The notes under the pieces: generated by a model
The model's input: only the letters and a program-made list of their open reading frames with translations
Database searches by the model: none
What the model was told of the DNA's origin: nothing
Origin: Halichondria panicea
Taxonomy: Eukaryota; Porifera; Demospongiae; Suberitida; Halichondriidae
Assembly: GCF_963675165.1 (NCBI RefSeq)
Contig: NC_087377.1
Location: 15,496,198-15,560,197, forward strand
Length of the DNA: 64,000 nt
Direction: 5' to 3'
Position numbers and translations under genes: made by a program
Part shown: positions 3,416 through 63,981 of the stretch, piece after piece
Numbering within the stretch: the stretch's first letter is position 1
How the letters are laid out: each line of letters starts with the position of its first letter

Positions 3416-6298
3416 CTAATTAGCACTTATAGAGAAGAAATCAACAGTTTGAAATTTAGTATACATGTACACATCTGTAAACAAATTAATTATTGTCTGT
3501 CCTCCGGCTACAATGACCTCTCCACTAGGAAGTACTGAGCATGTGCAGCGGTATCGTGCAGTAGGCAGGTCTTCTACTTTCACCCACCTCCTGGTGTCAG
3601 GCTGGTAGAGGTGGATCGATGAACTTAGGTTGGCTCTGTCGCCCCATCCACCAACGGCTAATAGTGACCTCCCAATACTGAGAGGAGCTGAGAACTTGAG
3701 TGGTACTTCTTGTAAAGTCTGCCAGAGAGTGGGTGTGTCCAGGTTGGAAAGGGCCTTTGCAATGAGTTCATTGAGGTCGACGTGGTGCACTGTCTTGGTT
3801 ACCTCAGTGTGATCGAACCCTCCCATTAGGTAGAGGGTGTTTCCTATGAGAGTCGATTTCAGTGATGATCGTGGGTTAGGTAGTGACTGAGCAATGTACC
3901 ATCTTCTTAATGCCACGTCCAACACCTCCACAGAGGAGGTGGTACGTCTTTTATCATCACGCCCACCAGCTACAATGATGTGGTTGTTGAAGGAGACAGC
4001 TGTTGAGGAATGACGAGCAATGTTCATTGGTGGGTACGGGTGAGTCCATTCCCCTGACACTAACACTGCAAGTTGATTGGTGGGTTTGTTGTTTCTTGAT
4101 TCACATCCTCCCACCAGCACTAGTTGATTAGCGAGTGATGTCATAGCGAACCAATAGGCAGTGTACTGTGGTAGTTTGGTCCATTCATCTTGCTCGAGCT
4201 TCATCACTGTACACCTGTCACAATCATTGTCTGGACTACCTCCACCAACATACACCGTGTCACTGATAACAGCACTCTGTACCGTGGTGCTCATCTTAAT
4301 TGGCATGTCTTTTCCTCTTCTCCATTTCAGAGTGAGTGGAGGTCTCAACTCTCTGGGAGGGGGACCCTGAATAATGAATGAGTGTAATTAGGATAGTGTC
4401 TACTAACAAGCGAGTGTTACTTGTAGCATGCACACTAAATCACTTTCTCTAATTAGCTTAAGAGGCCACGCCCACCAGTCTAATAGAATGTACAGTACGA
4501 TTATAAGAGATCAAAGCTTCTACTATAGCTCTGTAATAATAATTATAATGGTGCATTTCTCTGCTGTTGAATGATTGCGTCTCTCCTGACCAGCTCAGCA
4601 TCTTTGTGCTTAATCTGTTCCCTGTGTGTCTGTACAGGGGAACTTTGGTGGAAATTTTGTCACAGACGTGAATATCATTAGTGGAAATTCTACAACAGAA
4701 CGAGAACAAGCAACACTTTCTGCTAAAGGAAGTACATAATTATAGGCACACTCAAACGGATGTGTAGTTACGGCTTAACACATGAGACAGCATCCATGCA
4801 TGTTAAGGTACAATACTATTGCTGCTGTGGGAATCTCATTATCACACTACATGTACGCACCTTCTTGACTGGTTGAGTGTCCTTTGACTCCCTCTTTGTT
4901 GCCTCCACTGGGTCTGAGCTTGTTATGAGGTCAGCATCTAAAAAGTAAAAGAAAATCGATACCAACATGAAATGATTTTTTCTGTTAGAGCTAGGAGTTA
5001 GTGGAAACGTAAAACACATAATTATAATTAACTCACAGATGTCCGTGGCAGACGGTCTCCTCGTCATGTCTTCTTGCAAACAACTGTCGATAAGCTTCCT
5101 CAACTTGTGTGTGTGAGGGATCTGGGCAACATGGAATGATCGATCCTTGGCTGATTTGATCGTCTCCAGCTTGCAAACAATCTGCATCATAATCGCCCCA
5201 AGAGAGAACACATCCAAGCTATTATCGTAATTATCCTTGTCCAATCGAATAGCTTCAAGAGGTAGATACCCCATACGGTGACCAACGGCCGTGAGGGTGT
5301 GGCTAAGCATGGAGGGATCATATAGCCGTGACATGCCAAAGTCGGAAATCTTTGCGACAGGCACTGGTCGTGTAAGCTTCAGCAAAACGTTATCGCCACA
5401 GAGGTCACGGTGGATAATCTTCTTGCTATGAATGTAGGCCAGACCACAAGCTATGTCTTTAGAGAGGCTAATTTCACATTCGCTAGTGAGGGACTCTTTA
5501 TCAAGGCCAGAGAAATAGGATCTCAGATTGCAATCCATCAGCTCAACAACGAGGATTGTACTCCCTGATTTAGGGTGCTTAGCAGTCAACAAAAACTGAA
5601 CAACATTTGGGTGCTGGAACGACTTGAGAAAATCACTCTCACGATCAATTGCATCGCTAGCTTGTTCGTTTTTGCCGATTGGAATACTTGCCTGCATCTC
5701 CATAGCATCGTGAAGCAGCACTTTGACTGCACATATCTCGCCCCTGTAGCTGCCTTTGAAGACTGCTCCAAATGCACCTTTTCCGAGAAGTTCGTCTAAG
5801 AAAACAGTCAAATCATCGTTGATCTTCTGGCGGTTTTGGTCAACTGTAGAACATTGTGTGTGTGTGTGTGTGTGTGTGTGTGCATATTTATGTGTGTGGG
5901 TGTGGGGGGATATAACTATTATAGTAGTTAAGCATCATGTATGTATACATTCCTGTGCTGAACTAGTGCTTACCCTCTGACTTCACATCAGTAGGATTGC
6001 TTGCATCAGTAGACTGTAGATGATCTTTCTCGATGGTCCTGGCTATGTGAACGTGGCCCACAATGGGACTGGACAATGCTTGGACAACATCTTCCCAGCG
6101 TCTCTCTTCACCTTTCAGCCATTCTTTCAAACCCTCACGATAGCATTCTTCAGGATTGTCTCGCCATTTCGTACCAATACTATCGATGGTATCCGAGGGT
6201 ACATCAAGAATAAGCAAGATGTTTCGCCACTTAATTCGAGCATCAAACGTGACGAGGTACAATTTCTTTAGATCTGCTATTGTGAGATAGTCAGACAT
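3416..6298 (-). pseudogene. Death-kinase-kelch gene, copy 1 (splice donor deleted)
   Basis: Exons read on the minus strand: Death 6298-5974, kinase 5843-5037, linker 4937-4861, charged helix 4629 to about 4559, kelch 4366-3416. Phases agree (Death ends +1, kinase ends +1, linker ends 0). The Death domain opens at MSDYLTIADL and keeps the W of the helix-2/3 core (KWRNIL). The kinase has the glycine loop LGKGAFGAVF, CAVK lysine, HRDLCGDN catalytic loop, DFGMSR and the RRPSATDI C-lobe, so it should be active, of TKL/IRAK type. The kelch exon has six GG-ended blades. Oddity: 12 bases present in every other copy are missing at 4558/4559, removing the GTGAGA donor of the helix exon. Read on, the frame stops four codons later (NAPL, stop), so the propeller would be lost unless another donor is used. 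The Death-kinase intron holds a TG microsatellite (5857-5882). The kelch tail is longer than in the sister copies (extra NLFTDVYMY stretch). It may be a truncated Death-kinase gene rather than a dead one. Confidence 0.75.
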
Positions 6299-13328: not shown

Positions 13329-16261
13329 CTAATTAGCACTTATAGAGAAGAAATCAACAGTTTGAATATAAGGAAATGCACCTGTCCGTCCTCCGGCTAC
13401 AATGACCTCTCCACTAGGAAGTACTGAGCATGTGCAGCTGTATCGTGCAGTAGGCAGGTCTCCCACTTTCACCCACCTCCTGGTGTCAGGCTGGTAGAGG
13501 TGGATCGATGAACTTGGGTTGACTCTGTCGTCCCATCCACCAACGGCTAATAGTGACCTCCCAATACTGAGAGGAGCTGACCGCACGAGTGGTACTTCCT
13601 GTAAGGTCTGCCAGAGAGTGGGTGTGTCCAGGTTGGAAAGGGTCTTTGCAATGAGTTCATTGAGGTCGACGTGGTGCACTGTCTTGGTTGTCCCCCCAGT
13701 GTGCTCCCACCCTCCCATTAGGTAGAGGGCGTTTCCTATGAGAGTCGATTTCAGTCCTGATCGTGGGTTAGGTAGTGACTGAGCAATGTACCATCTTCTT
13801 GATTCCACGTCCAACACCTCCACAGAGGAGGAGGTACGTCCTTTATCATCATACCCACCAGCTACAATGATGTGGTTGTTGAAGGAGACAGCTGTTGAGC
13901 AATCACGAGCAATGTTCATTGGTGGGTACGGGTGAGTCCATTTCCCTGACTTAAACACTGCAAGTTGATTAGTTGGTTTGTTGTTTCTTGGATCAAATCC
14001 TCCCACAAGCACTAGTCGATTAGCGAGTGATGTCATAGTGAACCACTTGGCAGTGTACTCTGGTAGTTTGGTCCATTGATCTTGCTCGAGCTTCATCACT
14101 GTACACTTGTCACGATCATTGCCTGCACTACCTCCACCAACATACACCGTGTCACCGATAACAACACTCTGTACCGAGCCACCCATCTCGATTGGCATGT
14201 CTTTTCCTCTTCTCCATTTCAGTGGAAGTCTCAACTCTCTGGGAAGGGGACCCTGAATAATGAATGAGTGTAATTAGGATAGTGTCTACTAACAAGCGAG
14301 TGTTACTTGTAGCAATAATTGCATGCACACTAAATCACTTTCTCTAATTAGCTTAAGAGGCCACGCCCACCAGTCTAATAGAATGTACAGTACGATTATA
14401 AGAGATCAAAGCTTCTACTATAGCTCTGTAATAATATAATGGTGCATTTTGTCTCACCTGTCTCTGCTGTTGAATGATGGCGTCTCTCCTGACCAGCTCA
14501 GCATCTTTGTGCTCAGTCTGTTCCCTGTGTGCCTGTACAGGGGAACGTTGATGGAAATCTTTGAATTAAAACACAGACGTGAATATCATTAGTGGAAACT
14601 CTACAACAGGACGAGAACAAACAATAATTTCCGCTAAAGGAAGTACATAATTATAAGCACACTCAAACGGATGTGTAGTTACGGCTTAACACATGAGACA
14701 GCATCCATGCATGTTAAGGTACAATACTATTGTTGCTGTGGGAATCTCATTATCACACTACATGTACGCACCTTCTTGACTGGTTGAGTGTCCTTTGACT
14801 CCCTCTTTGTTGCCTCCACTGGGTCCGAGCCTCTTGTATCTAAAAGAGAGATTATAGGAAATCAACGCCAAACACTCATACCTTTAGTGTCCTTCATTTG
14901 AGTAAAGGTTGTCGTGCTCGTTCTTGTGTCTTTAGACATCTCCTCAACACCTTTTAGTTTGAGTTTGCTCTGATCCCTGTACGTGACATGTACATACTTG
15001 TAATAATACGAATATTATATTTAAATTATATATATATAGGGCCCATGCTTGTTATGGTATAATTATTATAATTATACCAGGAGTACCGGTATAGTGCCTC
15101 TTCAAGAACTTACTGTTCCAGCAGAAATGTCTCCACCTCATCTGTACTTCCACAGGTGAGAACTTTGACCCCCATCGCAATGAGAGCAGCCTGTACAGTA
15201 GGGGACACTGGGTAGACACGCTTGGCAACAGCTACAGTGATGAGAAAGTGGAGCTCTAAGCAGCCTTGTCTGACTGAACGGAGTTGTAGTGCTGCTCTTT
15301 GTAGACCAAGTGCCTCAGCAATTCTTCGTGTCAGCCTTCTTACATACTCCAGTGTGGTTACTTGCGATCGCTCAGTGAACTTAAGAACAAACACTTTAGC
15401 CGTTTTGATACGAGATTTTGAAGAGAAAGCTTCGGCCGGAACTTCAAACACATTTCGCTTACAGAACTGATCAAGTGCAGAACAATACTCACGCAGTTGT
15501 GTTTGGTCGTCTGGTGATCCCAGCAGCTCGATGAGGTACTGCACTATCTCATAGTTGAAGAAGGAGATGTAATCACGTAGAGTCATAAAGACTTGGGCCA
15601 AATTTTTGGCATTTTCAATCTTTTGCTTATCTTTTGGATCAAGCACTTTGACTCCAATCCCGTTGTTAAAAGCGTCGAGGCTGAGAACAAAATCTTTAAT
15701 CTTATCCAATGGGATCCGTTTTTCAAATGACTCTTGGATAATTAGAGTAAAAGCAGTGAATCTAATCATCATTTTCGTTGTATCCGCTATGAGCCGATCC
15801 TCCATTTCAATTCTATCGTCCTCATCAAGGCTAGAGGTGTCAAGGTACGGGAAACTGAAGGACGTCGGAGCCTCTGGTGGAGGTTGCTGGTGTGGGGGTG
15901 GAGAGAGTTGTGGCTGTTCAACACGGCTGGTCACAGTCTTGTGACGCTTGTAACTATCGTGTAGCTTCTTGACAACATCGTCAGTAGAAGGGCCAGCGAT
16001 GGCAGTGATAAAGCCGTGGAATACACTGGAATTGAGCTTAATTCGATGGATGATAGTATCCAGAATCTTTCGAGATTTATCCGAGTCCATAACTCCATTT
16101 AGTCTAGAGTACTCGAGAACTTCATCTGGTATGTAGCCATTGGAGAAGAGGCTATCAGCGTATGCAGCAGGTTGAGCTTTGAAGGTGGACACCAATGCTT
16201 CAAAGTTCTCTTGGAAGGACAGATACTCAGGAGAATGGTCAGGGGTTGCTTGAGTGGCCAT
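13329..16261 (-). CDS. CARD-like / unknown domain / kelch gene, copy 2
   Basis: Exons: 16261-15114, 14976-14882, 14839-14772, 14532-14458, 14252-13329; phases 2, 1, 0, 0 agree and the total is 2310 nt (769 aa). The apparent TAA at 15110 is simply the GTAAGT donor. Residues about 14-95 form a CARD-like six-helix segment (FQENFEALVSTF, GYIPDEVLEY, LDTIIHRI). Residues 115-135 are proline-rich. Residues about 155-380 form an unrecognised domain with a possible alpha/beta end (VFVLKFTE, RLTRRIAEALGL). Then come a linker, the 25-residue charged helix (HKDAELVRRDAIIQQQ) and six kelch blades. There is no kinase. The 3' module is the one shared by all array genes, so the N-terminus has been exchanged. 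A role as an adaptor that docks by CARD contacts and senses through the propeller is inferred. All exons are open. Confidence 0.85.
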
Positions 16262-16814
16262 TGACAGTTAGCCTGTGAGTGGACCAGGGCATTTCATACA
16301 ATGGCATATGGTGCACATCAATTTTAGTATGTAGAATCTCATTATATTATTCAGTGAAGTTAAACCGAGACTATTGCAACTTTGAGATGGGCTATAGAAT
16401 GAGATATGAATCACACACTCACCTTGGTGGCTACTCACTCCTTATAGGCCCTAGCTACACAGCCAAAAATTTCATTCTGTATCGGAACTGGCACAGTGTG
16501 TATCGGAAGTGGTTACAGTCGCATACAGATCATGTGATCATTTGTGAATCTGAACATTAGGGGAACAGGTCAGATTCAAAATGTGTGTACACTTATGTAT
16601 CGTTTTGTAATCGGAGCTGAATCAGACTAGAAATTCTATCATTCTGAAACTGACTGTAAAAAGCTCTTTTAATAATAGTTTCAGAATTGTCATTATTTTA
16701 AAGGCAAAGTGATAGTATACAGACAACAAATTAGCAATAGAATTGAAAGCACAAAAGTGATAGTAACAACATGAAAGCTACTGCGTCATGCAGTATACAT
16801 TGAAACAATACAAT
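16262..16814. other. Spacer between copy 2 and the gene at 16815-18812
   Basis: This stretch holds the 5' flank of copy 2 and the 3' flank of the next minus gene. I see no CACGTG pair here, unlike the Death-kinase promoters, and no repeat from the array. Copy 2 therefore has a promoter of different origin. Confidence 0.4.
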
Positions 16815-21614: not shown

Positions 21615-24480
21615 CTAATTAGCACAGAAGAAATCAACAGTTTGAAGTAAAGTAATTGTCTGTCCTCCGGCTACAATGACGTCTCCACTAGGAAGTACTG
21701 AGCATGTGCAGCAGTATCGTGCAGTAGGCAGGTCTCCCACTTTCACCCACCTCCTGGTGTCAGGCTGGTAGAGGTGGATCGATGAACTTGGGTAGAATCT
21801 GTCGTCCGCTCCACCAACGGCTAATAGTGACCTCCCAATACTGAGAGGAGCTGACCACACGAGTGGTACTTCCGGTAAGGTCTGCCAGATAGTGGGTGTG
21901 TCCAGGTTGGAAAGGGCTTTTGCAATGAGTTCATTGAGGTCGACGTGGTGCACTGTCTTGGTTGGCCTCAAAGTGTGATCCATCCCTCCCATTAGGTAGA
22001 GGGTGTTTCCTATGAGAGTCGATGTCAGTTTTGATCGTGGGTTAGGTAGTGACTGAGCAATGTACCATCTTCTTGATGCCACGTCCAACACCTCCACAGA
22101 GGAGAAGATACGTCCTTCATCATCAGTCCCACCAGCTACAATGATGTGGTTGTTGAAGGAGACAGCTGTTGAGGAAGAACGAGCAATGTTCATTGGTGGG
22201 TACGGATGAGTCCATTCCCCTGAACCAAACACTGCAAGTTGATTGGTGCGTTTGTTGTTTCTTAGATCCTTTCCTCCCACCAGCACTAGTTGATTAGCGA
22301 GTGATGTCATAGGGAAATACTTGGCAGTGTACTCTGGTAGTTTGGTCCATTGATCTTGCTCGAGCTTCATCACTTCATACATGTCATGATTGTTGTATGC
22401 ATTACCTCCACCAACATACACCGTGTCACCGATAATAACACTCTGTACAGAGCGACTCGTCTTGATTGGCATGTCTTTTCCTATTCTCCATTTCAGAGTG
22501 AGTGGAGGTCTCAACTCTCTGGGAGGGGGACCCTGAATAATGAATGAGTGTAATTAGGATAGTGTCTATACTAACAAGCGAGTGTTACTTGTAGCAATAA
22601 TAGCAATAACACACTTTCACTTTCTGTATTTTATTAGCTTAAGAGGCGACGCCTATGTCTAATAGAATGTACATCAAGATATACGTATATGTAGCTCAGT
22701 ATATTATTGCATTTTGTCTCACTTGTCGCTGTTGTTGAATGATAGCGTCTCTCCTGACCAGCTCAGCATCTTTGTGCTTAATCTGTTCCCTGTGTGCCTG
22801 TACAGGGGAACGTTGGTGGAATTTTTTACAGACGTGAATATCATTAATAAAAATTCTACAACAGAACGAGAACAAACGATTTCCGCTAACGGAAGTACAT
22901 AATTATAGGCACACTCAAACGGATGTGTAGTTACGGCTTAACACATGAGACAGCATCCATGCATGTTAAGGTACAATACTATTGTTGCTGTGGGAAACTC
23001 ATTATCACACTACATGTACGCACCTTCTTGACTGGTTGAGTGTCCTTTGACTCCTTCTTTGTTGCCTCCACTGGGTCCGAGCTTGTTGTCAGGTAATTAT
23101 CTAAAATCGACACCAACATTAATAGACGGATATGATTTTTTCGTTAGGGTTACAGTTAGCTGAAACGTAAAACACATAATATACTTATCATTGACTCACA
23201 GATGTCCCTGGCAGATGGTCTCCTCCTCATGTCTTCTTGCAAACAACTGTCGATAAGCTTCCTCAACCTGTGTGTGTGAGGGATCTGGGCAACATGGATT
23301 GATCGATCTTCTATAGATTTGATCGTCTTCAGCTTGCAAACAATCTGTACCATAATCGCCCCAAGAGAGAACACATCCAGGCTATTATCGTAATTATCCT
23401 TGTCCAATCGAATAGCTTCGAGAGGTAGATACCCCATACGATGACCAATGGCTGTGAGGGTGTGGCTAAGCATGGAGGCTAAGCATGGAGGGATCATATA
23501 GCCGTGACATGCCAAAGTCGGATATCTTTGCGACAGGCACTGGTCGTGTAAGCTTCAGCAAGACGTTATCGCCACAGAGGTCACGATGAATAATCTGCTT
23601 GCTGTGAATGTAGGCCAGACCACAAGCCATGTCTTTGGAGAGGCTAATTTCACATTTGCTAGTGAGGGACTCTTCATCAAGGCCGGAGAAATAGGATCTC
23701 AGATTGCAATCCATCAGCTCAACAACGAGGATTGTACTCCCTGATTTGGGGTGCTTGGCAGTCGACAAAAACTGAACAACGTTTGGGTGCTGGAATGACT
23801 TGAGAAAATCACTCTCACGATCAATTGCATTGCTAGCTTCTTCGTTTTTGCTGATTGGAATACTTGCCTGCATCTCCATAGCATCGTGAAGCAGCACTTT
23901 GACTGCACATATCTCGCCCCTGTAGCTGCCTTTGAAGACTGCTCCAAATGCACCTTTACCGAGAGGTTCGTCTAAGAAAACAGTCAAATCATCGTTGATC
24001 TTCTGGCGGTTTTGGTCAACTGTAGAACATTGTGTGTGTGTGTGTGTGTGTGTGTGTGAGTGTGTGTGTGTGTGTGTGGGGGGGGGGTGAATATTATAGC
24101 AGCTAACGAACTAAGCATTATGACTGTATGATTCCTGTGATGAACTAGTGCTTACCAACTGACTTCACATCAGTAGGATTGCTTGGACCAGTAGACTGTA
24201 GATGATCTTTCTCGATGGCCCTGGCTATGTGAACTTCACTCACGATGGGACTTGACAAAGCCTCCACCATCTCTTTCCAGCTTTTCCCTCCTTCATTAAG
24301 CCATCTAATCAAACCCTCACGATAGCAGTCATCAGGATTGTTGCTCCATTCTTTCCCGATGCTGTGGATTGTAGCCTGGGGTATGTCAAGAATAAGCAAG
24401 ATGTTTCGCCACTTGATTCGAGCATCAAACGTGACGAGATACAATCTCTTTAGATCTGCTATTGTGAGATAGTCGGACAT
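21615..24480 (-). pseudogene. Death-kinase-kelch gene, copy 3 (13-bp frameshift in kinase)
   Basis: Exons: Death 24480-24156, kinase 24019-23200 (820 nt instead of 807), linker 23100-23024, charged helix 22797-22723, kelch 22532-21615. The kinase is normal up to DFGMSRLYDPSMLS, with LGKGAFGAVF, CAVK and HRDLCGDN in place. The 13 bases CTAAGCATGGAGG (plus-strand sense) are then present twice in direct succession (23466-23491), shifting the frame and cutting off the C-lobe. The two halves are otherwise open, and the kelch exon is intact with its own set of blade residues. The Death domain pairs with that of copy 7. TG repeats fill the first intron. It is either a recent pseudogene or a truncated N-terminal product. 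Confidence 0.8.
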
Positions 24481-34698: not shown

Positions 34699-37600
34699 CT
34701 AATTAGCACTTATAGAGAAGAAATCAACAGTTTGAATAAAAGTAAACAGTTTTGTCTCTCCTCCGGCTACAATGACCTCTCCACTAGGAAGTACTGAGCT
34801 TGTGCAGTTGTATCGTACAGTAGGAAGGTCTCCCACTTTCACCCACCTCCTGGTGTCAGGCTGGTAGAGGTGGATCGATGAACTTGAGTTGACTCTGTCG
34901 TCCCGTCCACCAACGGCTAATAGTGAACTCCCAATACTGAGAGGAGCAGAACACAGGAGTGGTACTTCCTGTAAAGTCTGCCAGAGAGTGGGTGTGTCCT
35001 GGTTGGAAAGGGCCTTTGCAATAAGTTCATTGAGGTCGACGTGGTGCACTGTCTTGGTTGCCCCAGTGTGTTCATACCCTCCCATTAGGTAGAGGGTGTT
35101 TCCTATGAGAGTTGATTTCAGTACTGATCGTGGGTTAGGTAGTGACTGAGCAATGTACCATCTTCTTGATGCCACATCCAACACCTCCACAGAGGAGGCA
35201 TATCCTTTATCATCACCCCCACCAGCTACAATGATGTGGTTGTTGAAGGAGACAGCTGTTGAGGAAGAACGAGCAATGTTCATTGGTGGGTACGGGTGAG
35301 TCCATTCCCCTGATTCAAACACTGCAAGCTGATTGGTGCGTTTGTAATTGTTTCTTGGATCCTCTCCTCCCACCAGCACTAGTCGATTAGCGAGTGATGT
35401 CATAGCGAACCAATAGGCAGTGTACTCTGGTAGTTTGGTCCATTGATCTTGCTCGAGCTTCATCACTATACATATGTCACGATCATAGCCTGTATGACCT
35501 CCACCAACATACACCGTGTCACCGATAACAACACTGTGTACCGAGTCACCCATCTTGATTGGCATGTCTTTTCCTCTTCTCCATTTCAGAGTGAGTGGAA
35601 GTCTCAACTCTCTGGTAGGGGGACCCTGAATAATGAATGAGTGTAATTAGGATAGTGTCTACTAACAAGCGAGTGTTACTTGTAGCAATGATTGCATGCA
35701 CACTAAATCACTTTCTCTAATTAGCTTAAGAGGCCACGCCCACCAGTCTAATAGAATGTACAGTACGATTATAAGAGATCAAAGCTTCTACTATAGCTCT
35801 GCAATAATATAATGGTGCATTTTGTCTCACCTGTCTCTGCTGTTGAATGATGGCGTCTCTCCTGACCAGCTCAGCATCTTTGTGCCCAATTTGTTCCCTG
35901 TGTGCCTGTACAGAGGAACGTTGGTGGAAATCTAAAACACAGACGTGAATATCATTAGTGGAAATTCTACAACAGAACGAGAACAAACAACAATTTCTGC
36001 TAAAGGAAGTACATAATTATAGGCACACTCAAACGGATGTGTAGTTAGCAGCTTAGCATGATTTATACAATAGCATCAATTGTTGAGGTATAATACTATT
36101 GTTGGAATCTCATCGACACACTTAGCTATATGTACGCAAACAAATATCATTATTGAGTATAATACTAGCGTATAAGAGTGTGTGCATTTGGTGACTACTA
36201 TAATACCTGTAAGAGAGCGGCCCTCTCAACTAGAGCAGCCTCTCTCTGGGAAATGAGATCAGCGATCCTTGACTCTTGTTCACTGAGTTGTCTGTTCTTG
36301 TCAGAAATCATACCATCTTTGGTGGCAGCATTAGCACGGACACTATTCAATATCTGTATAAAGTGAAAAAAAGGTTATCAACATGTTAGCTCGTTGAACA
36401 AAATAGCTTATAATGAACAAAATAAACTGGTTCTGCTGACCTGTTGCTGTCTAGCAAGCTGAGTATCTTTGTCAGCTACTTCCTGAACAAGTAGCTCATC
36501 TTTTTGTGCCAGAAGTGCAGCATTCTGTTCCAACTGGTATCCTTGCTGTTCAAGTTGGTTGTCTTTTTGCACTAGAAGTACATCTTTCTCAGTAATTTGC
36601 TCATCTTTCCTCTCCAGTATCCTGTCCTTCTGGACCACCTCTCTCTGAGAACAGAGTACAGCATGCAGTGTCAGACCCTTGCACCCACTAGCTCACTGGA
36701 CTGGACTCACCTGTAGAGCCTCTATCCTCTTCTCCTTTGCCTTGAGGATCCTGACAGTCTTCACTCGTCCAATGTCCAGCTGGAGCAGTCCTCCGTCCAT
36801 CTCCCTCCCCACCTCCTCCAGAGACGAGAGGAGCTCAGCGGTGGTCGGTCTTCTCTCTGGGGTGTTGGCCAGACACTCCCTCACCAGACCAAACAGAGGG
36901 TGCTCACGTCCACCCACCAGACTCCTCTCAAGGAGAGCCGTGTAGGGATCTCGACGCTCAAACTCTGAGCGAGCCAGGAGGTGGTCTGGGTCGTTGGGGT
37001 CACTGTACGTGGGGGCAAGGAGATCTCCTGGAAACACCTAGTCCAATGACACGAGTGGAAGAACATGTGAATACTGACTGTCATGATTGTTTTTATGTAT
37101 GTCTGTATGTATGGAGAAAATGAGTGCACGTATATTCACAATCATACATACAAAATGCATTCGCTGAAGGTCAACAATATTAAAGGGGGATCTCCCCAAC
37201 ACATACAACCACAATACTTATAAGGTAATTCACTGCATGTATGGTCACCAGGAATCTAACCTATGAATATCATTAACTACACACATACTTGTGTGAGTGC
37301 AAACAGTTGTAGCACTCCGAAAGAGAAGACGTCCAGACTGGGTCCGTACACACTGTGACCTCTGTCAGAGAGGGCCTCGGGCGGCATGTACACCAGTGTC
37401 CCAGGAAACCTCGTCAGAGTCCTGGCCAGTCGACCAGGCTCCAGATTCACGATACGAGAGTTACCAAAGTCTGTGATCTTGGCTCTCAGAGATGCCGTCA
37501 GCAGGACGTTCCTGGCAGTGAGGTCACGATGGACCACGGACTCACGATGCAGGTGGAGCAGCCCTCGAGCCACACAGACCAGAATGTACTGGGTGACAGA

Positions 37601-38051
37601 GAGGGGGATGTTGGGGGTGGACTCCAGGAGATCGTCCAGACTTGAGTCCAGCCTCTCCATGACCAGGAGGGGCAGTCGAGAGCCAGTCACGAAACACAGC
37701 CCAATGAACTGGGTGATGTTGGGGTGACGGATGCGAGCCATGAGTCGACACTCTCGGCGGTAGTTCCCAGCTAGGTTGGCCACTCCACCACGCTCGTCCG
37801 TCTCCAGGAGAACCTCGTGGATCTTCTTGGCTGCATACACCTCACCATTGATCATCACCTGTGCATGGAGGCAGTCACACTTGAATAGCTAGCAGATACA
37901 CTAGAGACAGTGCACAGAAACAGAGCATGCAGTGACTGACCTCTTGAACAGAGCCATAGGAGCCAGTTCCTAGAACTCTCTCCTCTCCAAAGTGCTCCAC
38001 ATTCTCCAGCACAAACTCCCTCAAGTCAGCATCATCTCGCAAAGAAAACAT
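34699..38051 (-). CDS. Kinase / coiled-coil / kelch gene, copy 4
   Basis: Seven exons, all phase 0: 38051-37941, 37858-37289, 37037-36711, 36644-36441, 36353-36207, 35905-35831, 35625-34699 (2361 nt, 786 aa). The kinase starts almost at the N-terminus with no Death domain: glycine loop LGTGSYGSV split from the lysine (YAAKKI) by an intron, catalytic loop HRDLTARNVLL, DFGNSR, YMPPEAL and DVFSFGVL. The HRDLxARN form is usual in tyrosine and some TKL kinases, so specificity cannot be fixed. Exons 36644-36441 and 36353-36207 form a long coiled coil (VQKDNQLEQQGYQLEQ, SEQESRIADLISQRE) that probably oligomerises the protein. The shared charged helix and kelch follow. This kinase is not an allele of the Death-kinase type; the 5' part was exchanged. 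Every exon is open. Confidence 0.9.
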
Positions 38052-41377: not shown

Positions 41378-43804
41378 CTAATTAGCACTTATAGAGAAGA
41401 AATCAACAGTTTGAGCATAAATAAATGAATTTGTCTGTCCTCCGGCTACAATGACCTCTCCACTAGGAAGTACTGAGCATGTGAAGTAGTATCGTGCAGT
41501 AGGCAGGTCTCCCACTTTCACCCACCTCCTGGTGTCAGGCTGGTAGAGGTGGATCGATGAACTTGTGTTGTGTCTGTCGTCCTGTCCACTAACGGCTAAT
41601 AGTGACCTCCCAATACTGAGAGGAGCTGAGAACTTGAGTGGTACTTCCTGTAAGGTCTGCCAAAGAGTGGGTGTGTCCAGGTTGGAAAGGGCCTTTGCAA
41701 TGAGTTCATTGAGGTCGACGTGGTGCACTATCTTGGTTGGCCCAGTGGGATCCACCCCTCCCATTAGGTAGAGGGTGTTTCCTATGAGAGTCGATTTCAG
41801 TACTGATCGTGGGTTAAGTAGTGACTGAGCAATGTACCATCTTCTTGATGCCACCTCCAACACCTCCACAGAGGAGATACGTACTTTGTCATTATACCCA
41901 CCAGCTACAATGATGTGGTTGTTGAAGGAGACAGCTGTTGAGTAAGCACGAGCAATGTTCATTGGTGGGTACGGGTGAGTCCATTCCCCTGATTCAAACA
42001 CTGCAAGCTGATTGGTGCGTTTTTTGTTTCTTGGATTATTTCCTCCCACCAGCACTAGTCGATTAGCGAGTGATGTCATAGCGAAGTACATGGCAGTGTA
42101 CTCTGGTAGTTTGGTCCATTGATCGTGCTCGAGCTTCATCACTGTACACATGTCACGATCATTGCCTGCATTACCTCCACCAACATACACCGTGTCACCG
42201 ATAACAACACTCTGTACCGAGCCACCCATCTTGATTGGCATGTCTTTTCCTCTTCTCCATTTCAGAGTGAGTGGAGGTCTCAACTCTCTGGGAGGGGGAC
42301 CCTGAATAATGAATGAGTGTAATTAGGATAGTGTCTACTAACAAGCGAGTGTTACTTGTAGCAATAATTGCATGCACACTAAATCACTTTCTCTAATTAG
42401 CTTAAGAAGCCACGCCCACCAGTCTAATAGAATGTACAGTACGATTATAAGAGATCAAAGCTTCTACTATAGCTCTGCAATAATATAATGGTGCATTTTG
42501 TCTCACCTGTCTCTGCTGTTGAATGATGGCGTCTCTCCTGACCAGCTCAGCATCTTTGTGCCCAATCTGTTCCATGTGTGCCTGTACAGGGGAACGTTGG
42601 TGGAAATCAAACACAGACGTGAATAACATTAGAGAAAATTCTACAAAGAACGAGACAATCTTCACTAAAGGAAGTATACATAATTATAGGCACACTCAAA
42701 CGGATGTGTAGTTACGGCTTAACACATGAGACAGCATCCATGCATATTAAGGTACAATACTATTGTTGCTGTAGGAATCTCATTATCACACTACATGTAC
42801 GCACCTTCTTGACTTGTTCAGTGTCCTTTGACTCCCTCTTTGTTGCCTCCACTGGGTCCGAGCTTGTTGTCAGGTAAGTATCTAAAATCGATACCAACAT
42901 TAATAGACGGACATGATTTTTTCGTTAGGGTTACAGATAGCTGAAACGTAAAACACATAATAATATTATACTTATCATTGACTCACAGATGTCCCTGGCA
43001 GATGGTCTCCTCCTCATGTCTTCTTGCAAACAACTGTCGATAAGCTTCCTCAACCTGTGTGTGTGAGGTATCTGGGCAACATGGAATGATCGATCTTCCA
43101 CAGATTTGATCGTCTTCAGCTTGCAAACAATCTGCATCATAATCGCCCCAAGAGAGAACACATCCAAGCTATTATCGTAATTATCCTTGTCCAATCGAAT
43201 AGCCTCGAGAGGTAGATACCCCATACGGTGACCAATGGCTGTGAGGGTGTGGCTAAGCTTGGAGGGATCGTATAGCCGTGACATGCCAAAGTCGGATATC
43301 TTTGCGACAGGCACTGGTCGTGTAAGCTTCAGCAAGACGTTATCACCACAGAGGTCACGATGGATAATCTGCTTGCTGTGAATGTAGGCCAGACCACAAG
43401 CCATGTCTTTGGAGAGGCTAATTTCACATTCGCTAGTGAGGGACTCTTCATCAAGGCCGGAGAAATAGGATCTCAGATTGCAATCCATCAGCTCAACAAC
43501 GAGGATTGTACTCCCTGACTTGGGGTGCTTGGCAGTCGACAAAAACTGAACAACGTTTGGGTGCTGGAACGACTTGAGAAAATCACTCTCACGATCAATT
43601 GCATTGCTAGCTTCTTCGTTTTTGCCGATTGGAATACTTGCCTGCATCTCCATAGCATCATGAAGCAGCACTTTGACTGCACATATCTCGCCCCTGTAGC
43701 TGCCTTTGAAGACTGCTCCAAATGCACCTTTACCAAGAGGTTCGTCTAAGAAAACAGTCAAATCATCGTTGATCTTCTGGCGGTTTTGGTCAACTGTAGA
43801 ACAT

Positions 43805-43848: not shown

Positions 43849-44256
43849 GGGGGGGTGAATATTATATTATATATAGCAGCTAACGAACTAAGCATTATGA
43901 CTGTATGATTCCTGTGCTGACTAGTGCTTACCCTCTGACTTCACATCAGTAGGATTGCTTGCATCAGTAGACTGTAGATGATCTTTCTCGATGGTCTGGG
44001 CTATGTAAACGTGGCCCACAATGGGACTTGATAAAGCTTTGATAACATCTTCCCAGCTTCTCTCACCACCTTTCAGCCATTCTTTCAAACCCTCACGATA
44101 GCAGTCATCAGGATTGTTGCTCCAATCTTTCCCAATGCTGTCGATGGTATCCGAGGGTATCTCAAGAACTAGCAAGAAGTTTCGCCACTTGATTCGAGCA
44201 TCAAACGTAGCTATGTATAGTTTTCCTAGATCTGCTATTGTGAGATAGTCAGACAT
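41378..44256 (-). CDS. Death-kinase-kelch gene, copy 5 (intact)
   Basis: Exons: Death 44256-43932, kinase 43793-42987, linker 42881-42805, charged helix 42581-42507, kelch 42301-41378; 2208 nt, 735 aa. Residues about 1-95 are the Death domain (MSDYLTIADL start, IKWRNFLLVLEIP core), about 121-375 the kinase (LGKGAFGAVF, CAVKVLL, HRDLCGDN, DFGMSR, YLPLEAI, DVFSLGAIMMQ, RRPSARDI), 404-428 the charged helix, 429-735 six kelch blades. Death plus kinase is the IRAK/Pelle arrangement of Toll/interleukin-1 signalling. The added propeller is not known to me in IRAKs. No signal peptide or membrane segment is seen, so it is cytosolic. The kinase should be active. Sensing by the propeller and signalling by the kinase is inference. 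The first intron holds a TG microsatellite (43806-43846). Confidence 0.93.
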
Positions 44257-51297: not shown

Positions 51298-54178
51298 CTA
51301 ATTAGCACTTATAGAGAAGAAATCAACAGTTTGAATAAAAGTAGGCGATTTTGTCTTTCCTCCGGCTACAATGATCTCTCCACTAGGAAGTACTGAGCAT
51401 GTGCAGCTGTATCGTGCAGTAGGCAGGTCTCCCACTTTCACCCACCTCCTAGTGTCAGGCTGGTAGAGGTGGATCGATGAACCTGGGTTGACTCTGTCGT
51501 CCCGTCCACCAACGGCTAATAGTGACCTCCCAATACTGAGAGGAGCTGACGACATGAGTGGTACTTCCTGTAAGGTCTGCCAGAGAGTGGGTGTGTCCAG
51601 GTTGGAAAGGGCTTTTGCAATGAGTTCATCGAGGTCGACGTGGTGCACTGTCTCGGTTGGGCTACCGAACCCTCCCATTAGGTAGAGGGTGTTTCCTATG
51701 AGAGTTGATTTCAGTTCTGATCGTGGGTTAGGTAGTGACTGAGCAATGTGCCATCTTCTTGATGCCACGTCCAACACCTCCACAGAGGAGGAGGTACGTC
51801 CTTTATCATCACACCCACCAGCTACAATGATGTGATTGTTGAAGGAGACAGCTGTTGAGGAATGACGAGCAATGTTCATTGGTGGGTACGGGTGAGTCCA
51901 TTCCCCTGACTTGAACACTGCAAGCTGATTGGTGGAATTTTTGTTTCTTGGATCATGTCCTCCCACCATCACTAGTCGATTAGCGAGTGATGTCATAGCG
52001 AAGTACCTGGCAGTGTACTCTGGTAGTTTGGTCCATTGATCTTGCTCGAGCTTCATCACTGTACACGCGTCACGATTATTGTCTGCACCACCTCCACCAA
52101 CATACACCGTGTCACCGATAACAACACTCTGTACCGAGCCACCCATCTTGATTGGCATGTCTTTTCCTCTTCTCCATTTCAGAGTGAGTGGAGGTCTCAA
52201 CTCTCTGGGAGGGGGACCCTGAATAATGAATGAGTGTAATTAGGATAGTGTCTACTAACAAGCGAGTGTTACTTGTAGCAATAATTGCATGCACACTAAA
52301 TCACTTTCTCTAATTAGCTTAAGAGGCCACGCCCACCAGTCTAATAGAATGTACAGTACGATTATAAGAGATCAAAGCTTCTACTATAGCTCTGCAATAA
52401 TATAATGGTGCATTTTGTCTCACCTGTCTCTGCTGTTGAATGATGGCGTCTCTCCTGACCAGCTCAGCATCTTTGTGCTCAATTTGCTCCCTGTGTGCCT
52501 GTACAGGGGAACGTTGGTGGAATCTTTCACACACGTGAATATCATAATGAAAATTCTACAACAGAACGAGAACAAACAACAATTTTCGCTAACAGAAGTA
52601 CATAATTATAGGCACACTCAAACGAATGTGTAGTTACGGCTTAACACATGAGACAGCATCCATGCATGTTAAGGTACAATACTATTGTTGCTGTGGGAAT
52701 CTCATTATCACACTACATGTACGCACCTTCTTGACTGGTTGAGTGTCCTTGGACTCCCTCTTTGTTGCCTCCACTGTGTCAGAGTCGCTTGTCAGTGAAG
52801 CATCTAAAGTAAAAGTTAAATCTTTAATAAGGAACTTTTTCCAAACAAAATTTCGGAATCGTACAAGACACAATTGACTCACAAATTATTTGCGGTAAAA
52901 TGTACAACACATTAATTATTTAATTAACTCACAGATGTCCCTGGCAGATGGTCTCTTCCCCATGTCTTTTTGCAAGCAACTGTCGATAAGCTTTTTCAAC
53001 CTGTGTGTGTGAGGGACATCGGCAACACGGTCTAATCGATCTTCCATAGATTTGACCGTCTCCAGCTTGCAAACAATCTGTACCATAATCACCCCAAGGG
53101 AGAAAACATCGACGCTATTATCATAGTTCTCCTTGTCCAATCGAATAGCCTCGAGAGGTAGATACCCCATACGGTGACCAATGGCTGTGAGGGTGTGGCT
53201 AAGCTTGGAGGAATCATATAGCCGTGACATGCCAAAGTCGGAAATCTTTGCGACAGGTACTGGTCGTGCAAGCTTCAGCAAGACGTTATCGCCACAGAGG
53301 TCACGGTGGATAATTTGCTTGCTGTGAATGTAGGCCAGACCACAAGCAATGTCTTTGGAGAGGCTAATTTCATATTCGCTAGTGAGGGACTCTTCATCAA
53401 GACCAGAGAAATAGGATCTCAGACTGCAATCCATCAGCTCAACAACGAGCATTGTACCACCTGATTTGGGGTGCTTGGCAGTCGACAAATACAGAACAAC
53501 GTTTGGGTGTTGGAGTGACTGGAGAAACTTACACTCACGATCAAATGCTTTGCTAGCTTCTTCACTTTTACTGACTGAGATACCTGTCTGCATTTCTACA
53601 GCCTCATAAATTAGAAGTTTGACTGCACATATCTCGCCCTTGTAGCTGCCTTTGAAGACTGCTCCAAATGCACCTTTACCGAGAGGCTCGTCTAGGAAAA
53701 CGGTCAAATCGTCGTTGATCAGCTGGCGATTTTGATAAACTGTAGATTATTGTGTGTGTGTGTGTGTGTGTGTGTGTAGGGGGTCCAGGGGGTGGATAAT
53801 AGCAGCTAACATCATGTATGAGATATGCATTCCTGTGCTGAACTAGTGCTTACCCTCTGACTTCACATCAGTAGGATTGCTTGCATCAGTAGACTGTAGA
53901 TGATCATTCTCAATGGTCCTGGCTATGTCACTGTGGCCCACAATAGGACTTGACAAAGCTTTGACAACATCATCCCAGCTTCTCTCGCCACCTTTCAGCC
54001 ATTCTTTCAAACCCTCACGATAGCATTCATCAGGATTGTTGCTCCAATCTTTCCCAATGCTGTCGATGGTATCCGAGGGTATCTCAAGAACCAGCAAGAA
54101 GTTTCGCCACTTGATTCGAGCATCAAACGTAGCTATGTATAGTTTTCCTAGATCTGCTATTGTGAGATAGTCAGACAT
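51298..54178 (-). CDS. Death-kinase-kelch gene, copy 6 (intact, divergent kinase)
   Basis: Exons: Death 54178-53854, kinase 53739-52933, linker 52803-52727, charged helix 52498-52424, kelch 52218-51298; 2205 nt, 734 aa. The Death exon is nearly the same as copy 5, but the kinase N-lobe differs in many residues (VKLLIYEAVEMQTGISVS, AFDRECKFLQSLQ) while keeping LGKGAFGAVF, CAVK, HRDLCGDN and DFGMSR. The N-lobe changes lie around helix C and could alter partner choice. Kelch blade 4 has a shorter loop (MGGFGSPTET). The intron after Death holds a TG repeat (53752-53778). Confidence 0.93.
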
Positions 54179-61180: not shown

Positions 61181-63981
61181 CTAATTAGCACTTATAGAGA
61201 AGAAATCAACAGTTTGAATAATAGTATAACTGTTGGTCTGTCCTCCTGCTACAATGACCTCTCCACTAGGAAGTACTGAGCATGTGCAGTTGAGTCGTGC
61301 AGTAGGCAGGTCTCCCACTTTCACCCACCTCCTGGTGTCAGGCTGGTAGAGGTGGATCGATGAACTTGGGTTGAATCTGCCGTCCCGTCCACCAACGGCT
61401 AATAGTGACCTTCCAATACTGAGAGGAGCTGACGACACGAGTGGTACTTCCTGTAAGGTTTGCCAGAGAGTGGGTGTGTCTAGGTTGGAAAGGGCTTTTG
61501 CAATGAGTTCATTGAGGTCGACGTGGTGCACTGTCTTGGTTAGGCTCCCAGTGTGATTGAACCCTCCCATTAGGTAGAGGGTGTTTCCTATAAGAGTCGA
61601 TTTCAGTATTGATCGTGGGTTAGGTAGTGACTGAGCAATGTACCATCTTCTTGATGCCACGTCCAACACCTCCACAGAGGAGGTTAATCGTTTATTATCA
61701 TACCCACTAGCTACAATGATGTGGTTGTTGAAGGAGACAGCTGTTGAGGAATCACGAGCAATGTTCATTGGTGGGTACGGGTGAGTCCATTCCCCTGCTT
61801 TAAACACTGCAAGCCGATTGGTGCGTTTGTTCTTTCTTGGATCACGTCCTCCCACCATCACTAGTCGATTAGCAAGTGATGTCATAGCGAAGTACCTGGC
61901 AGTGTACTCTGGTAGTTTGGTCCATTGATCTTGCTCGAGCTTCATCACTGTACACATGTCACGATCATCGACTGCAACACCTCCACCAACATACACCGTG
62001 TCACCGATAACAACACTCTGTACCGAGTCACCCATCTTGATTGGTATGTCTTTTCCTGTTCTCCATTTCAGAGTGAGTGGAGGTCTCAACTCTCTGGGAG
62101 GGGGACCCTGAATAATGAATGAGTGTAATTAGGATAGTGTCTACTAACAAGCGAGTGTTACTTGTAGCAATAATTGCATGCACACTAAATCACTTTCTCT
62201 AATTAGCTTAAGAGGCCACGCCCACCAGTCTAATAGAATGTACAGTACGATTATAAGAGATCAAAGCTTCTACTATAGCTCTGCAATAATATAATGGTGC
62301 ATTTTGTGTCACCTGTCTCTGCTGTTGAATGATGGCGTCTCTCCTGACCAGCTCAGCATCTTTGTGCTTAGTCTGTTCCCTGTGAGCCTGTACAGGGGAA
62401 CGTTGGTGGAAATCTTTGAATTAAAACACAGACGTAAATATCATTAGTGGAAATTCTACAACAGAACAAGAACAAACAACAATTTCCGCTAAAGGAAGTA
62501 CATAATTATAAGCACACTCAAACGGATGTGTAGTTACGGCTTAACACATGAGACAGCATCCATGCATGTTAAGGTACAATACTATTGTTGCTGTGGGAAT
62601 CTCATTATCACACTACATGTACGCACCTTCTTGACTGGTTGAGGGTCCTTTGACCTCCTCTTTGTTGCCTCCACTGAACCAGAACCTCTCGTCAAGTAAG
62701 CATCTAGAAAATCGATACCAACATTAATACAGACGAATATGATTTTTTTCGTTAGGGTTATAGTTATAGGGTTAGCGGAATTGTAAAACACATAATTATA
62801 ATTAACTCACAGATGTCCCTGGCAGATGGTCTCCTCCTCATGTCTTCTTGCAAACAACTGTTGATAAGCTTTCTCAACCTGTGTGTGTGAGGGATCTGGG
62901 CAACATGGAATGATCGATCCTTGGCTGATTTAATGGTCTCTAGCTTGCAAACAACCTGCGTCACAATCACCCCATAGGAAAACACATCCAGGCTACTATC
63001 GTATTTCTCTTCTTCCAATCGAATAGCCTCGAGAGGTAGATACCCCATACGGTGACCAATGGCTGTGAGGGTGTGGCTAAGCTTGGAGGAATCATATAGC
63101 CGTGACATGCCAAAGTCGGATATCTTTGCGACAGGCACTGGTCGTGTTAGCTTCAGCAAGACGTTATCGCCACAGAGGTCACGATGGATAATCTGCTTGC
63201 TATGAATGTAGGCCAGACCACAAGCCATGTCTTTGGAGAGGCTAATTTCACATTCGCTAGTGAGGGACTCTTCATCAAGGCCAGAGAAATAGGATCTCAG
63301 ATTGCAATCCATCAGCTCAACAACGAGGATTGTACTCCCTGATTTGGGGTGCTTGGCAGTCGACAAAAACTGAACAACATTTGGGTGCTGGAACGACTTG
63401 AGAAAATCACTCTCACGATCAATTGCATTGCTAGCTTCTTCATTCTTGCCGACTGAAATACTTGCCTGCATCTCCATAGCATCGTGAAGCAGCACTTTGA
63501 CTGCACAAATCTCGCCCTTGTAGCTGCCTTTGAAGACTGCTCCAAATGCACCTTTACCAAGACGCTCGTTTAGGAAAACAGTTAAATCCTCGTTGATCTT
63601 CTGGCGATCTTGGTCAACTGTGGAATGTTGTGTGGGGTAAAATATTATGCCGAATTGGTGCTTACCTTGTAATTTAGGGTTGTTTGGACCAGTAGACAGT
63701 AGATGATCTCTTTCGATGGTCTGGGCTATGTGAACTTCACTCACGATGGGACTTGACAAAGCCTCCACCATCTCTTTCCAGCTCTTCCCTCCTTCATTCA
63801 GCCATTCTTTCAAACCCTCACGATAACAGTCATCAGGATTGTTGCTCCATTCTTTCCCGATGCTGTCAATTGTAGCTGAGGGTACGTCAAGAATAAGCAA
63901 GATGTTTCGCCACTTAATTCGAGCATCAAACGTGACGAGATACAATCTCTTTAGATCTGCTATCGTAAGATAGTCGGACAT
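61181..63981 (-). CDS. Death-kinase-kelch gene, copy 7 (intact, 48-nt first intron)
   Basis: Exons: Death 63981-63666, kinase 63617-62811, linker 62703-62627, charged helix 62387-62313, kelch 62107-61181; 2202 nt, 733 aa spliced. Death residues resemble copy 3 (EWSNNPDDCYREG, GGKSWKEMVEA). The kinase has LGKGAFGAVF (preceded by LNER), CAVK, HRDLCGDN and DFGMSR. The first intron is only 48 bases (63618-63665), has no TG repeat, no stop and a length divisible by three, so retention would add 16 residues and still give a full protein. The helix-exon donor is GTGACA rather than GTGAGA. Blade 3 has SG in place of GG. Confidence 0.92.

What the first reader, a model, noticed from the sequence alone, without database searches (positions are those of the whole stretch)
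3416..62107. Hypervariable residues at homologous positions of all six kelch blades
Read across copies 1-7, the residue following the blade-ending GG is: blade 1 S,S,N,H,N,G,V; blade 2 C,F,K,E,N,H,R (all different); blade 3 R,Y,T,G,Y,C,Y; blade 4 F,W,M,Y,V,F,F; blade 5 W,W,A,R,Q,R,R; blade 6 Q,R,Q,E,Q,K,Q. A second set varies in step: blade 2 YTAxxF (YW,KW,KY,YW,MY,RY,RY); blade 3 IARxxST (HS,DC,SS,SS,AY,HS,DS); blade 4 PRSxL (S,G,K,V,V,E,I); blade 5 PLxxSAP (KF,VR,VW,LC,KF,MS,VS). The framework between them is nearly invariant. In kelch propellers such as KEAP1 the residues after GG (for example Tyr334, Tyr572) and in the PR-S/N-x stretch (Ser363, Arg415) form the ligand-binding face. Diversification limited to that face is the signature of a recognition repertoire under diversifying selection.
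Basis: partly seen in the sequence, partly recalled or inferred. Interest (0 to 1): 0.95.

Follow-up and report, generated by a model that had tools for sequence, protein, structure and literature searches.

The report
Hypervariable kelch propeller receptor repertoire
An animal-type genome carries well over a hundred near-copies of a gene segment for a ring-shaped binding domain that is almost frozen except for one face, which has been driven to vary at extreme speed, as expected of a large set of recognition receptors.

Summary
The seven kelch exons (3416-62107, minus strand) belong to at least 127 copies in this unnamed 131-Mb genome. In 114 fetched copies (106 distinct), 22 of 304 well-filled columns carry two bits or more of amino-acid entropy. 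All 22 lie in the BC and DA loops, the ligand face of known kelch domains; none lies in 47 back-loop or 152 strand columns. piN/piS is 2.8 at these codons, 0.47 in the framework, 0.40 in the linked kinase. Split-half and position-defined controls agree. Simulation points to an omega near 10-30 and largely reproduces the frozen third codon positions, so targeted mutagenesis is not required. One window gene reads in frame as Death domain, TKL-like kinase, coiled coil and kelch propeller. The kelch exon evolves largely apart from its kinase and sits behind at least two kinds of module. It works like the fungal HNWD WD40 repertoire but is built from other parts. Immune or allorecognition function is inferred; expression, ligand and organism are unknown. 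No structure model could be run.

The parts
3416..4366 (-). kelch propeller exon, copy W1 (start placed by analogy with the acceptor of copy W7)
   Evidence: open frame, kelch domains
13329..14252 (-). kelch propeller exon, copy W2
21615..22532 (-). kelch propeller exon, copy W3
   Evidence: acceptor CAG|GGTC
34699..35625 (-). kelch propeller exon, copy W4
41378..42301 (-). kelch propeller exon, copy W5
51298..52218 (-). kelch propeller exon, copy W6 (reference for residue numbers; the last base of residue p is 52240-3p)
   Evidence: (Kelch_1 98 bits)
61181..62107 (-). kelch propeller exon, copy W7
   Evidence: acceptor ATTCAG, in frame with upstream exons; kelch domains
62313..62387 (-). W7 exon that looks like a short coiled coil (AHREQTKHKDAELVRRDAIIQQQRQ; by eye, no predictor run)
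   Evidence: GT-AG borders, frame kept
62627..62703 (-). W7 linker exon
   Evidence: GT-AG borders, frame kept
62811..63981 (-). W7 Death domain (63688-63981) and TKL-like kinase in one open frame
   Evidence: Pkinase E 4e-37; the Death exon profile matches FADD, E 0.003
53885..54178 (-). W6 Death domain exon
52919..53746 (-). W6 kinase open frame
43963..44256 (-). W5 Death domain exon
42934..43803 (-). W5 kinase open frame (HRD and DFG motifs seen in the sequence)
24187..24480 (-). W3 Death domain exon
23159..24110 (-). W3 kinase region, frame interrupted (two overlapping open frames)
6005..6298 (-). W1 Death domain exon
4819..5934 (-). W1 kinase open frame
   Evidence: Pkinase E 5e-37
37280..37888 (-). 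W4 kinase of a different kind (about 31% identical to the others)
15113..16267 (-). W2 upstream module of 385 aa, no known domain; relatives lie upstream of 12 of 127 kelch exons
52138..52140 (-). W6 variable codon 34, DA loop of blade 1 (13 codons across 106 copies, all ending in C)
52066..52089 (-). W6 residues 51-58, BC loop of blade 1 (variable 51, 53, 58)
52006..52008 (-). W6 residue 78, DA loop of blade 2
51955..51957 (-). W6 residue 95, first after GG, blade 2 (15 amino acids)
51862..51864 (-). W6 residue 126, DA loop of blade 3
51811..51813 (-). W6 residue 143, first after GG, blade 3
51715..51717 (-). W6 residue 175, DA loop of blade 4
51658..51669 (-). W6 residues 191-194, BC loop of blade 4 (variable 191, 193, 194)
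51550..51555 (-). W6 residues 229-230, DA loop of blade 5
51490..51504 (-). W6 residues 246-250, BC loop of blade 5 (variable 246, 250)
51406..51408 (-). W6 residue 278, DA loop of blade 6
51337..51351 (-). W6 residues 297-301, BC loop of blade 6

Best explanation
The window is part of a genomic repertoire of intracellular recognition receptors. A complete gene encodes a Death domain, a TKL-like kinase, a short coiled coil and a six-bladed kelch propeller (one gene, W7, checked in frame here). Shown: one face of the propeller (BC and DA loops of all six blades) is under strong diversifying selection while its framework and the linked kinase are under purifying selection. Shown: silent divergence of the kelch exon is about a third of that of the kinase in the same genes and only weakly correlated with it, which points to exchange between copies (gene conversion or exon replacement) alongside selection on the face. 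Inferred: each propeller binds a different ligand of microbial, viral or non-self origin; binding clusters the coiled coil, the kinase is activated by proximity, and the Death domain recruits downstream signalling that ends in inflammation or cell death.
For: At least 127 copies, 104 of them in two arrays on one contig. 22 of 22 high-entropy columns in DA and BC loops. piN/piS 2.80 at those codons, 0.47 framework; kinase 0.0714/0.1768 = 0.40 in 28 frames, where the only 2 of 284 columns with 2 bits or more are residues 278 and 284 of the reading frame, past the donor inferred from W7. Split-half and position-defined controls. Silent change inside the variable codons is raised only 1.6-fold (same-residue pairs differing in codon 0.089 against 0.055) to 2.4-fold (piS 0.181 against 0.076), far less than replacement change (14-fold in piN). 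Copies with 13 of 810 framework bases different can differ at 19 of 22 variable residues. Matched genes: kelch framework dS 0.061, kinase dS 0.174, kelch lower in 366 of 378 pairs, correlation 0.21. Variable residues of different blades are nearly uncorrelated. Different modules upstream of the same kind of kelch exon. Predicted W7 protein of 749 aa with GT-AG introns in frame.
Against: No ligand, expression or polymorphism data. The Death assignment is weak by sequence (Pfam E 0.01 in 2 of 5; PDB profile E 0.003). No structural model. For 44 of 127 kelch exons no Death, kinase or 385-aa module was found upstream (capped lists). Loop borders drawn by hand after seeing the variability. r2 between framework variants shows no decay with distance, so conversion tracts are not demonstrated; kinase dS and variable-residue differences still correlate at 0.36 and five of seven pairs with kinase dS below 0.05 are plain recent duplicates. 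The omega 30 simulation gives fewer amino acids per site (8.9) than seen (11.3). The W3 kinase frame is interrupted and one exon of 114 (L053) ends early, so some copies may be pseudogenes.
Confidence: 0.7

Rival explanations
1. The same molecular design serves allorecognition (self against conspecific non-self) and not pathogen or symbiont sensing: the face binds a polymorphic self label and triggers rejection.
For: The closest mechanistic parallel, fungal HNWD, is an allorecognition system with face-limited diversifying selection and concerted evolution (PMC1805685, abstract and passages).
Against: More than 100 copies in one genome resembles pathogen-sensing families more than the few loci usual for allorecognition (recalled); no partner locus is known. 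The present data cannot separate the two.
Confidence: 0.3
2. A targeted mutagenesis process (like diversity-generating retroelements or somatic hypermutation) writes the variable codons, leaving third positions untouched.
For: Codon 34 takes 13 codons all ending in C; similar NNT, NNC, NNG and NNA series at other sites. Whole-codon replacements occur between near-identical copies. The simple selection model yields fewer amino acids per site than observed.
Against: A plain codon model with omega near 30 gives nearly the same diversity at codon positions 1, 2 and 3 (0.53, 0.52, 0.23 against 0.51, 0.57, 0.24) and the same silent change within those codons (0.090 against 0.089). The fixed third base differs between sites, so there is no common template base. 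The sites are set by protein geometry in six blades. Reverse transcriptase and template repeat were not searched for.
Confidence: 0.05
3. Relaxed constraint in surface loops with frequent gene conversion, without positive selection.
For: Loops of propellers often vary (recalled); exchange among copies is likely.
Against: Under omega 1, sites with 7 or more amino acids: 0 of 150 and 0 of 132 at mu 0.04, 0 of 132 at mu 0.08, 2.3% of 132 at mu 0.15; observed at all 22 sites, mean 11.3. piN exceeds piS. The AB and CD loops stay conserved (0 of 47 columns at 2 bits or more).
Confidence: 0.05
4. The arrays are swollen by assembly artefacts (unmerged haplotypes, duplicated tiles).
For: Eight of 114 exons are exact duplicates of others; two large blocks have opposite orientation; some C28 copies differ from C6 copies by 1-5 framework bases.
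Against: 106 of 114 are distinct, with 96 face combinations among the 106. Only 6 of 52 fetched minus-array copies have a plus-array partner within 10 codon differences (median best 44), and their order is not a clean mirror image.
Confidence: 0.05

Closest known systems
Fungal HNWD/NWD family (het-d, het-e) of Podospora anserina
   Same: Beta-propeller recognition domain; diversifying selection confined to a few residues per repeat at the interaction face; concerted evolution of the repeats; different N-terminal domains (PMC1805685 abstract and passages; PMC4986451 passages).
   Different: WD40 repeats shuffled as units within and between genes, NACHT domain, HET effector, 10 members. Here kelch blades, each blade keeping its own identity, kinase plus Death domain, at least 127 copies of the exon.
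BTB-Kelch (KLHL) adaptors such as KEAP1 and KLHL20
   Same: Six-bladed kelch domain; the variable positions fall in the BC and DA loops that form the substrate surface of KLHL20 (PMC6720452, passages); KEAP1 ligand contacts named in PMC6891428, their register to our columns recalled.
   Different: No BTB or BACK domain found in the exons scanned; fused to a kinase instead; hypervariable between copies.
IRAK/Pelle and RIP kinases
   Same: Death domain plus TKL-type kinase in one chain (recalled architecture).
   Different: Carries a C-terminal propeller and exists as a huge tandem family; relation to IRAK or RIPK not tested by phylogeny.
Expanded animal NLR repertoires (for example Dysidea avara, PMC12909245, seen in a search listing only)
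   Same: Large receptor families with death-fold signalling (recalled); NACHT matches are also abundant in this genome (at least 102).
   Different: No NACHT found in the gene; the sensor is a kelch propeller.

Membership tests
Kelch six-bladed propeller | six kelch repeats with GG at the end of strand B | tested here: met
   Pfam kelch models over the cut-off in all seven window exons; matches to solved kelch domains; six GG motifs in each window copy, allowing SG in one blade of W5 and W7
BTB-Kelch (KLHL) family | BTB/BACK domain in the same chain | tested here: not met
   No BTB in Pfam scans of the seven kelch exons and the W7 Death-kinase frame at E 0.001; the remaining W7 exons are only 77 and 75 bases. 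An undetected further 5' exon is not excluded.
HNWD / NLR (STAND) family | NACHT or NB-ARC NTPase domain in the same chain | tested here: not met
   Pfam finds only kinase in the W7 Death-kinase frame and only propeller families in the kelch exons; Death domain by profile
HNWD-like mode of diversification (works like) | diversifying selection limited to the interaction face of a propeller | tested here: met
   the face is assigned by homology, without a structure model
HNWD-like mode of diversification (works like) | concerted evolution of the propeller apart from the rest of the gene | tested here: met
   kelch framework dS 0.061 against kinase dS 0.174 in 28 matched genes, correlation 0.21; tracts not mapped, no second species
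IRAK/Pelle or RIP kinases | Death domain plus kinase domain | tested here: met
   Kinase strong; Death weak but consistent: 11 of 11 PDB matches up to E 10 are FADD, best E 0.003; Pfam Death E 0.01 in 2 of 5, none at E 5 for the W7 exon alone
IRAK/Pelle or RIP kinases | kinase groups with IRAK or RIPK in a phylogeny | not tested
   Best solved-structure matches are EGFR, LIMK1, CTR1, TAO3, CERK1 and B-Raf; no tree built
Diversity-generating retroelement target | template repeat with adenine-directed change and a reverse transcriptase | tested here: inconclusive
   Codon pattern largely explained by selection alone; fixed third bases differ between sites; reverse transcriptase and template repeat not searched

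The most novel reading that the evidence does not exclude
A previously undescribed animal immune receptor class: more than a hundred germline kelch receptors, many of them Death-kinase-kelch, in which a single beta-propeller scaffold carries a 20-odd residue hypervariable paratope spread over all six blades, renewed by exon-level gene conversion between copies and coupled to interchangeable signalling modules. This would be an animal counterpart, evolved independently, of the fungal HNWD propeller repertoire.
Probability: 0.5. Interest if true: 0.92.

Novelty: new variant of a known kind. Interest (0 to 1): 0.82.

Why it matters
Known animal recognition repertoires use immunoglobulin, LRR, SRCR, fibrinogen or lectin scaffolds (recalled). 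A kelch propeller used as a diversified binding face, fused to a kinase and a Death domain, would add a new scaffold and a new signalling logic. It would also be a case of convergence with fungi on the same solution: a propeller face diversified under selection while the framework is kept in step among copies. The variable residues are so sharply defined that ligand screens, deep resequencing and structure work have exact targets.

Tried and rejected
Targeted mutagenesis: the frozen third codon positions looked like randomised NNC/NNT codons; simulation showed that plain strong selection gives nearly the same pattern, so it was set aside, though the model yields somewhat fewer amino acids per site than seen. 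Assembly artefact: few close partners between the two arrays. Relaxed constraint: rejected by piN/piS above 1 and by the conserved back loops. Circularity of choosing sites by entropy: met with split halves, position-defined classes and the window copies alone. A fast maximum-likelihood tree was made but not used for site tests, because blade distances are weakly or not correlated. Relatives in prokaryote genomes: 37 pattern matches, none a relative.

Rows and columns dropped: of 127 copies 114 were used, 13 were not fetched; 8 exact duplicates were removed before site statistics; three fetched loci that repeat window copies (L009, L018, L022) were left out; kelch motifs outside the 127 were not studied. 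Columns absent from W6 or with 15 or more gaps were left out; of these, five with 2 bits or more of entropy lie in the insertions of BC loops 4 and 6. The framework includes seven read-through codons before the exon; one search leaves them out. Kinase comparison: 28 frames of 250 aa or more from the window and 47 fetched loci with flank; loci fetched as exon only could not be used. The ten close pairs were picked by me.


Full report
Observation. The seven kelch exons and every residue quoted in the finding are present as written. The exon proper begins at GPPPREL directly after a CAG or TAG acceptor, found in 54 of 54 copies with upstream flank. The preceding codons LHSFIIQ are intron read-through. 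Three of 127 copies have a stop inside the matched stretch: two of these (L010, L057) have open frames from GPP onward, so their stop lies in the read-through; the third is L053, which ends early.

Scale. The window lies at C1:15496198-15560197 of an unnamed 131-Mb assembly. A search with copy W6 found 127 copies (a lower bound) at 82-100% identity: 107 on C1, 17 on C6, 3 on C28. On C1, 54 copies lie in 15.4-16.2 Mb, all on the minus strand, and 50 in 16.7-17.4 Mb, all on the plus strand; median spacing is 9.3 and 8.2 kb. I obtained 114 of the 127 (7 in the window, 107 fetched). 106 are distinct at DNA level and 105 as proteins. Only 6 of 52 fetched minus-array copies have a plus-array partner within 10 codon differences.

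Where the variation is. Mean entropy is 0.49 bits over well-filled columns, but 22 columns reach 2.0-3.45 bits with 7-15 amino acids each. Placed on the kelch blade plan, 7 are in DA loops and 15 in BC loops; none is among 152 strand columns or 47 back-loop (AB, CD) columns. At 1 bit or more there are 34 of 87 face columns and 7 of 217 others: 3 in strands, 2 in the CD loop of blade 4, 2 in the C-terminal tail. All six blades contribute at the residue before strand A and at or near the residue after GG. I drew the loop borders by hand; the contrast with the back loops should not depend on fine borders. In KLHL20 the substrate surface is formed by the BC and DA loops, and the bound peptide touches all six DA loops and five of six BC loops (PMC6720452, passages). 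KEAP1 contacts named in PMC6891428 (abstract and passages) include Tyr334, Tyr525, Tyr572, Ser363 and Arg415; their exact register to our columns is recalled, not computed.

Selection. Pairwise piN/piS is 0.507/0.181 = 2.80 at the 22 codons, 2.45 at 19 codons of 1-2 bits and 0.0355/0.0761 = 0.47 at 270 framework codons. Classes defined by position alone: face loops 2.00 (bootstrap 1.83-2.18), back loops 0.50, strands 0.38; first residue after GG in six blades 2.81; the DA residue in six blades 2.91 (for the last the six residues were picked with the variability known). Sites chosen on half the copies give 2.77 (2.48-3.16 over 20 splits) on the other half, framework 0.48. In the seven window copies alone, with sites chosen on the others: 0.555/0.156 at 21 sites against 0.038/0.051 at 263. 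The linked kinase gives 0.0714/0.1768 = 0.40 in 28 frames.

Mutation or selection. At several sites the third codon base is nearly fixed while positions 1 and 2 are close to saturation; site 34 has 13 codons, all ending in C in 106 copies. This resembles directed randomisation. Coalescent simulation under a simple codon model with silent diversity matched to the framework (mu 0.04) gives, at omega 30, diversity of 0.53/0.52/0.23 at the three positions and 0.090 silent difference among same-residue pairs; observed 0.51/0.57/0.24 and 0.089. Its mean number of amino acids per site, 8.9, is below the observed 11.3, which omega 60 would reach (11.8) at the price of too much silent and third-position diversity. 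With doubled mutation depth, omega 8 and 15 bracket the observed diversities. Under omega 1, sites with 7 or more amino acids were 0 of 150 and 0 of 132 at mu 0.04, 0 of 132 at mu 0.08 and 2.3% at mu 0.15; all 22 observed sites have 7 or more. Silent and replacement changes are compared inside the same codon, so recombination between sites matters little to this test. Strong selection is therefore enough for most of the pattern. The estimate assumes a neutral-like coalescent and equal favour for every replacement.

Exchange. Copies L029 and L030 differ at 13 of 810 framework bases but at 19 of 22 variable residues. Variable-residue distances of different blades are almost uncorrelated (r from -0.02 to 0.15), framework distances weakly correlated (-0.06 to 0.34). 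Linkage is seen only between neighbouring variable sites (mean excess information 0.34 bits at 1-5 residues, about 0.12-0.16 beyond 15), and r2 among 41 two-state sites is low (0.03-0.08) with no decay by distance, so tract lengths cannot be read from it. Between ten close pairs, 22 of 64 differing codons at sites of 1 bit or more differ by two or three bases, against 3 of 75 in the framework; this fits whole-codon swaps but also repeated hits under strong selection. In 28 genes with both parts, kelch framework dS is 0.061 and kinase dS 0.174; the kelch value is lower in 366 of 378 pairs and the two correlate at 0.21. Kinase dS and the number of variable-residue differences correlate at 0.36. 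Of seven pairs with kinase dS below 0.05, five are recent duplicates (0-3 variable differences) and two differ at 15 and 18 variable residues. Flanking non-coding diversity averages 0.116 upstream and 0.145 downstream, above the framework piS of 0.076. Diversity is lowest from about 30 bases before the acceptor to 50 bases into the exon and rises upstream (ungapped, so the far upstream values are inflated). I conclude that the kelch exon evolves largely in concert as a cassette; gene conversion is the likely agent but was not demonstrated by tract mapping.

Gene architecture. W7 assembles with GT-AG introns in one frame to 749 aa: Death domain, kinase, linker, coiled-coil-like exon, kelch. The splice sites are by consensus; no transcript was seen. 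Death rests on a profile of five window exons whose 11 PDB matches up to E 10 are all FADD, best E 0.003, and on Pfam Death at E 0.01 in 2 of 5. The kinase shows HRD and DFG motifs and matches LIMK, CTR1, B-Raf and others. Of 127 kelch exons, 60 have Death and kinase upstream, 5 kinase only, 6 Death only, 12 the 385-aa module of W2, and 44 none of these (capped lists). W4 has a different kinase.

Comparison. The nearest system in mode of action is the fungal HNWD family: WD40 propeller, four residues per repeat under diversifying selection at the interaction surface, concerted evolution between members (PMC1805685, abstract and passages), different N-terminal domains (PMC4986451, passages). 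Membership fails, since no NACHT was found. KLHL membership fails for want of BTB. Seven of my ten paper searches bore on this family (one search found 0 papers; two searches were about KEAP1 and genome size). Their listings (titles and starts of abstracts, at most 20 of up to 433 papers each, open-access PMC only) showed no Death-kinase-kelch family and no hypervariable kelch domain in animals; this does not exclude one in papers not listed, subscription journals or preprints. One sponge study has two 'Kelch motif containing gene' entries in its tables of genes responding to microbial patterns (PMC6208332, passages); whether they are related is unknown.

Verdict. The pattern is real, extreme and well controlled. 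Recognition is the best reading; immune or allorecognition function is inferred. The organism is not identified.

Noticed in passing
window 23159-24110: The W3 kinase frame is interrupted next to a short tandem duplication, while its Death exon and kelch exon are open; pseudogene or assembly error.
   Followed up: partly
window 15113-16267: A 385-aa open frame without a Pfam match or a significant PDB match sits upstream of kelch copy W2; close relatives lie upstream of 12 of 127 kelch exons and distant ones elsewhere in the genome.
   Followed up: partly
window 8190-10877, 30052-32308, 46029-48999, 55962-58845 (+): Four plus-strand blocks of closely similar open frames between the kelch genes (about 85-100% identical); one frame has a NUP210 Ig-like match (E 7e-7), another a weak NTPase match below its cut-off. 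The duplicated unit thus carries more than the kelch gene.
   Followed up: partly
about 30 bases before to 50 bases after each kelch acceptor (window about 62058-62137 for W7): The least diverse stretch measured around the acceptor in 54 copies, including intron bases (pi 0.004-0.036 per 10 bases); splicing signals may explain part, or it may mark one end of the exchanged cassette.
   Followed up: partly
C1:15.48-16.13 Mb and 16.71-17.39 Mb of the own genome: Two large arrays of the family with strictly opposite orientation, 54 minus and 50 plus copies; 6 of 52 fetched minus copies have a close partner in the other array.
   Followed up: partly
L063 and L092, residue 95; L104 and L109, residue 191: Near-identical copies differ by whole-codon replacements (three and two bases) at variable sites with few other changes, suggesting very short conversion tracts or multi-base events.
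   Followed up: partly
own genome: At least 102 NACHT matches, many of them on C7, C13 and C14, so this genome has a second very large receptor-type expansion.
   Followed up: no
window 36411-37888: W4 carries a different kinase and a frame that looks like a long coiled coil upstream of the same kind of kelch exon.
   Followed up: no
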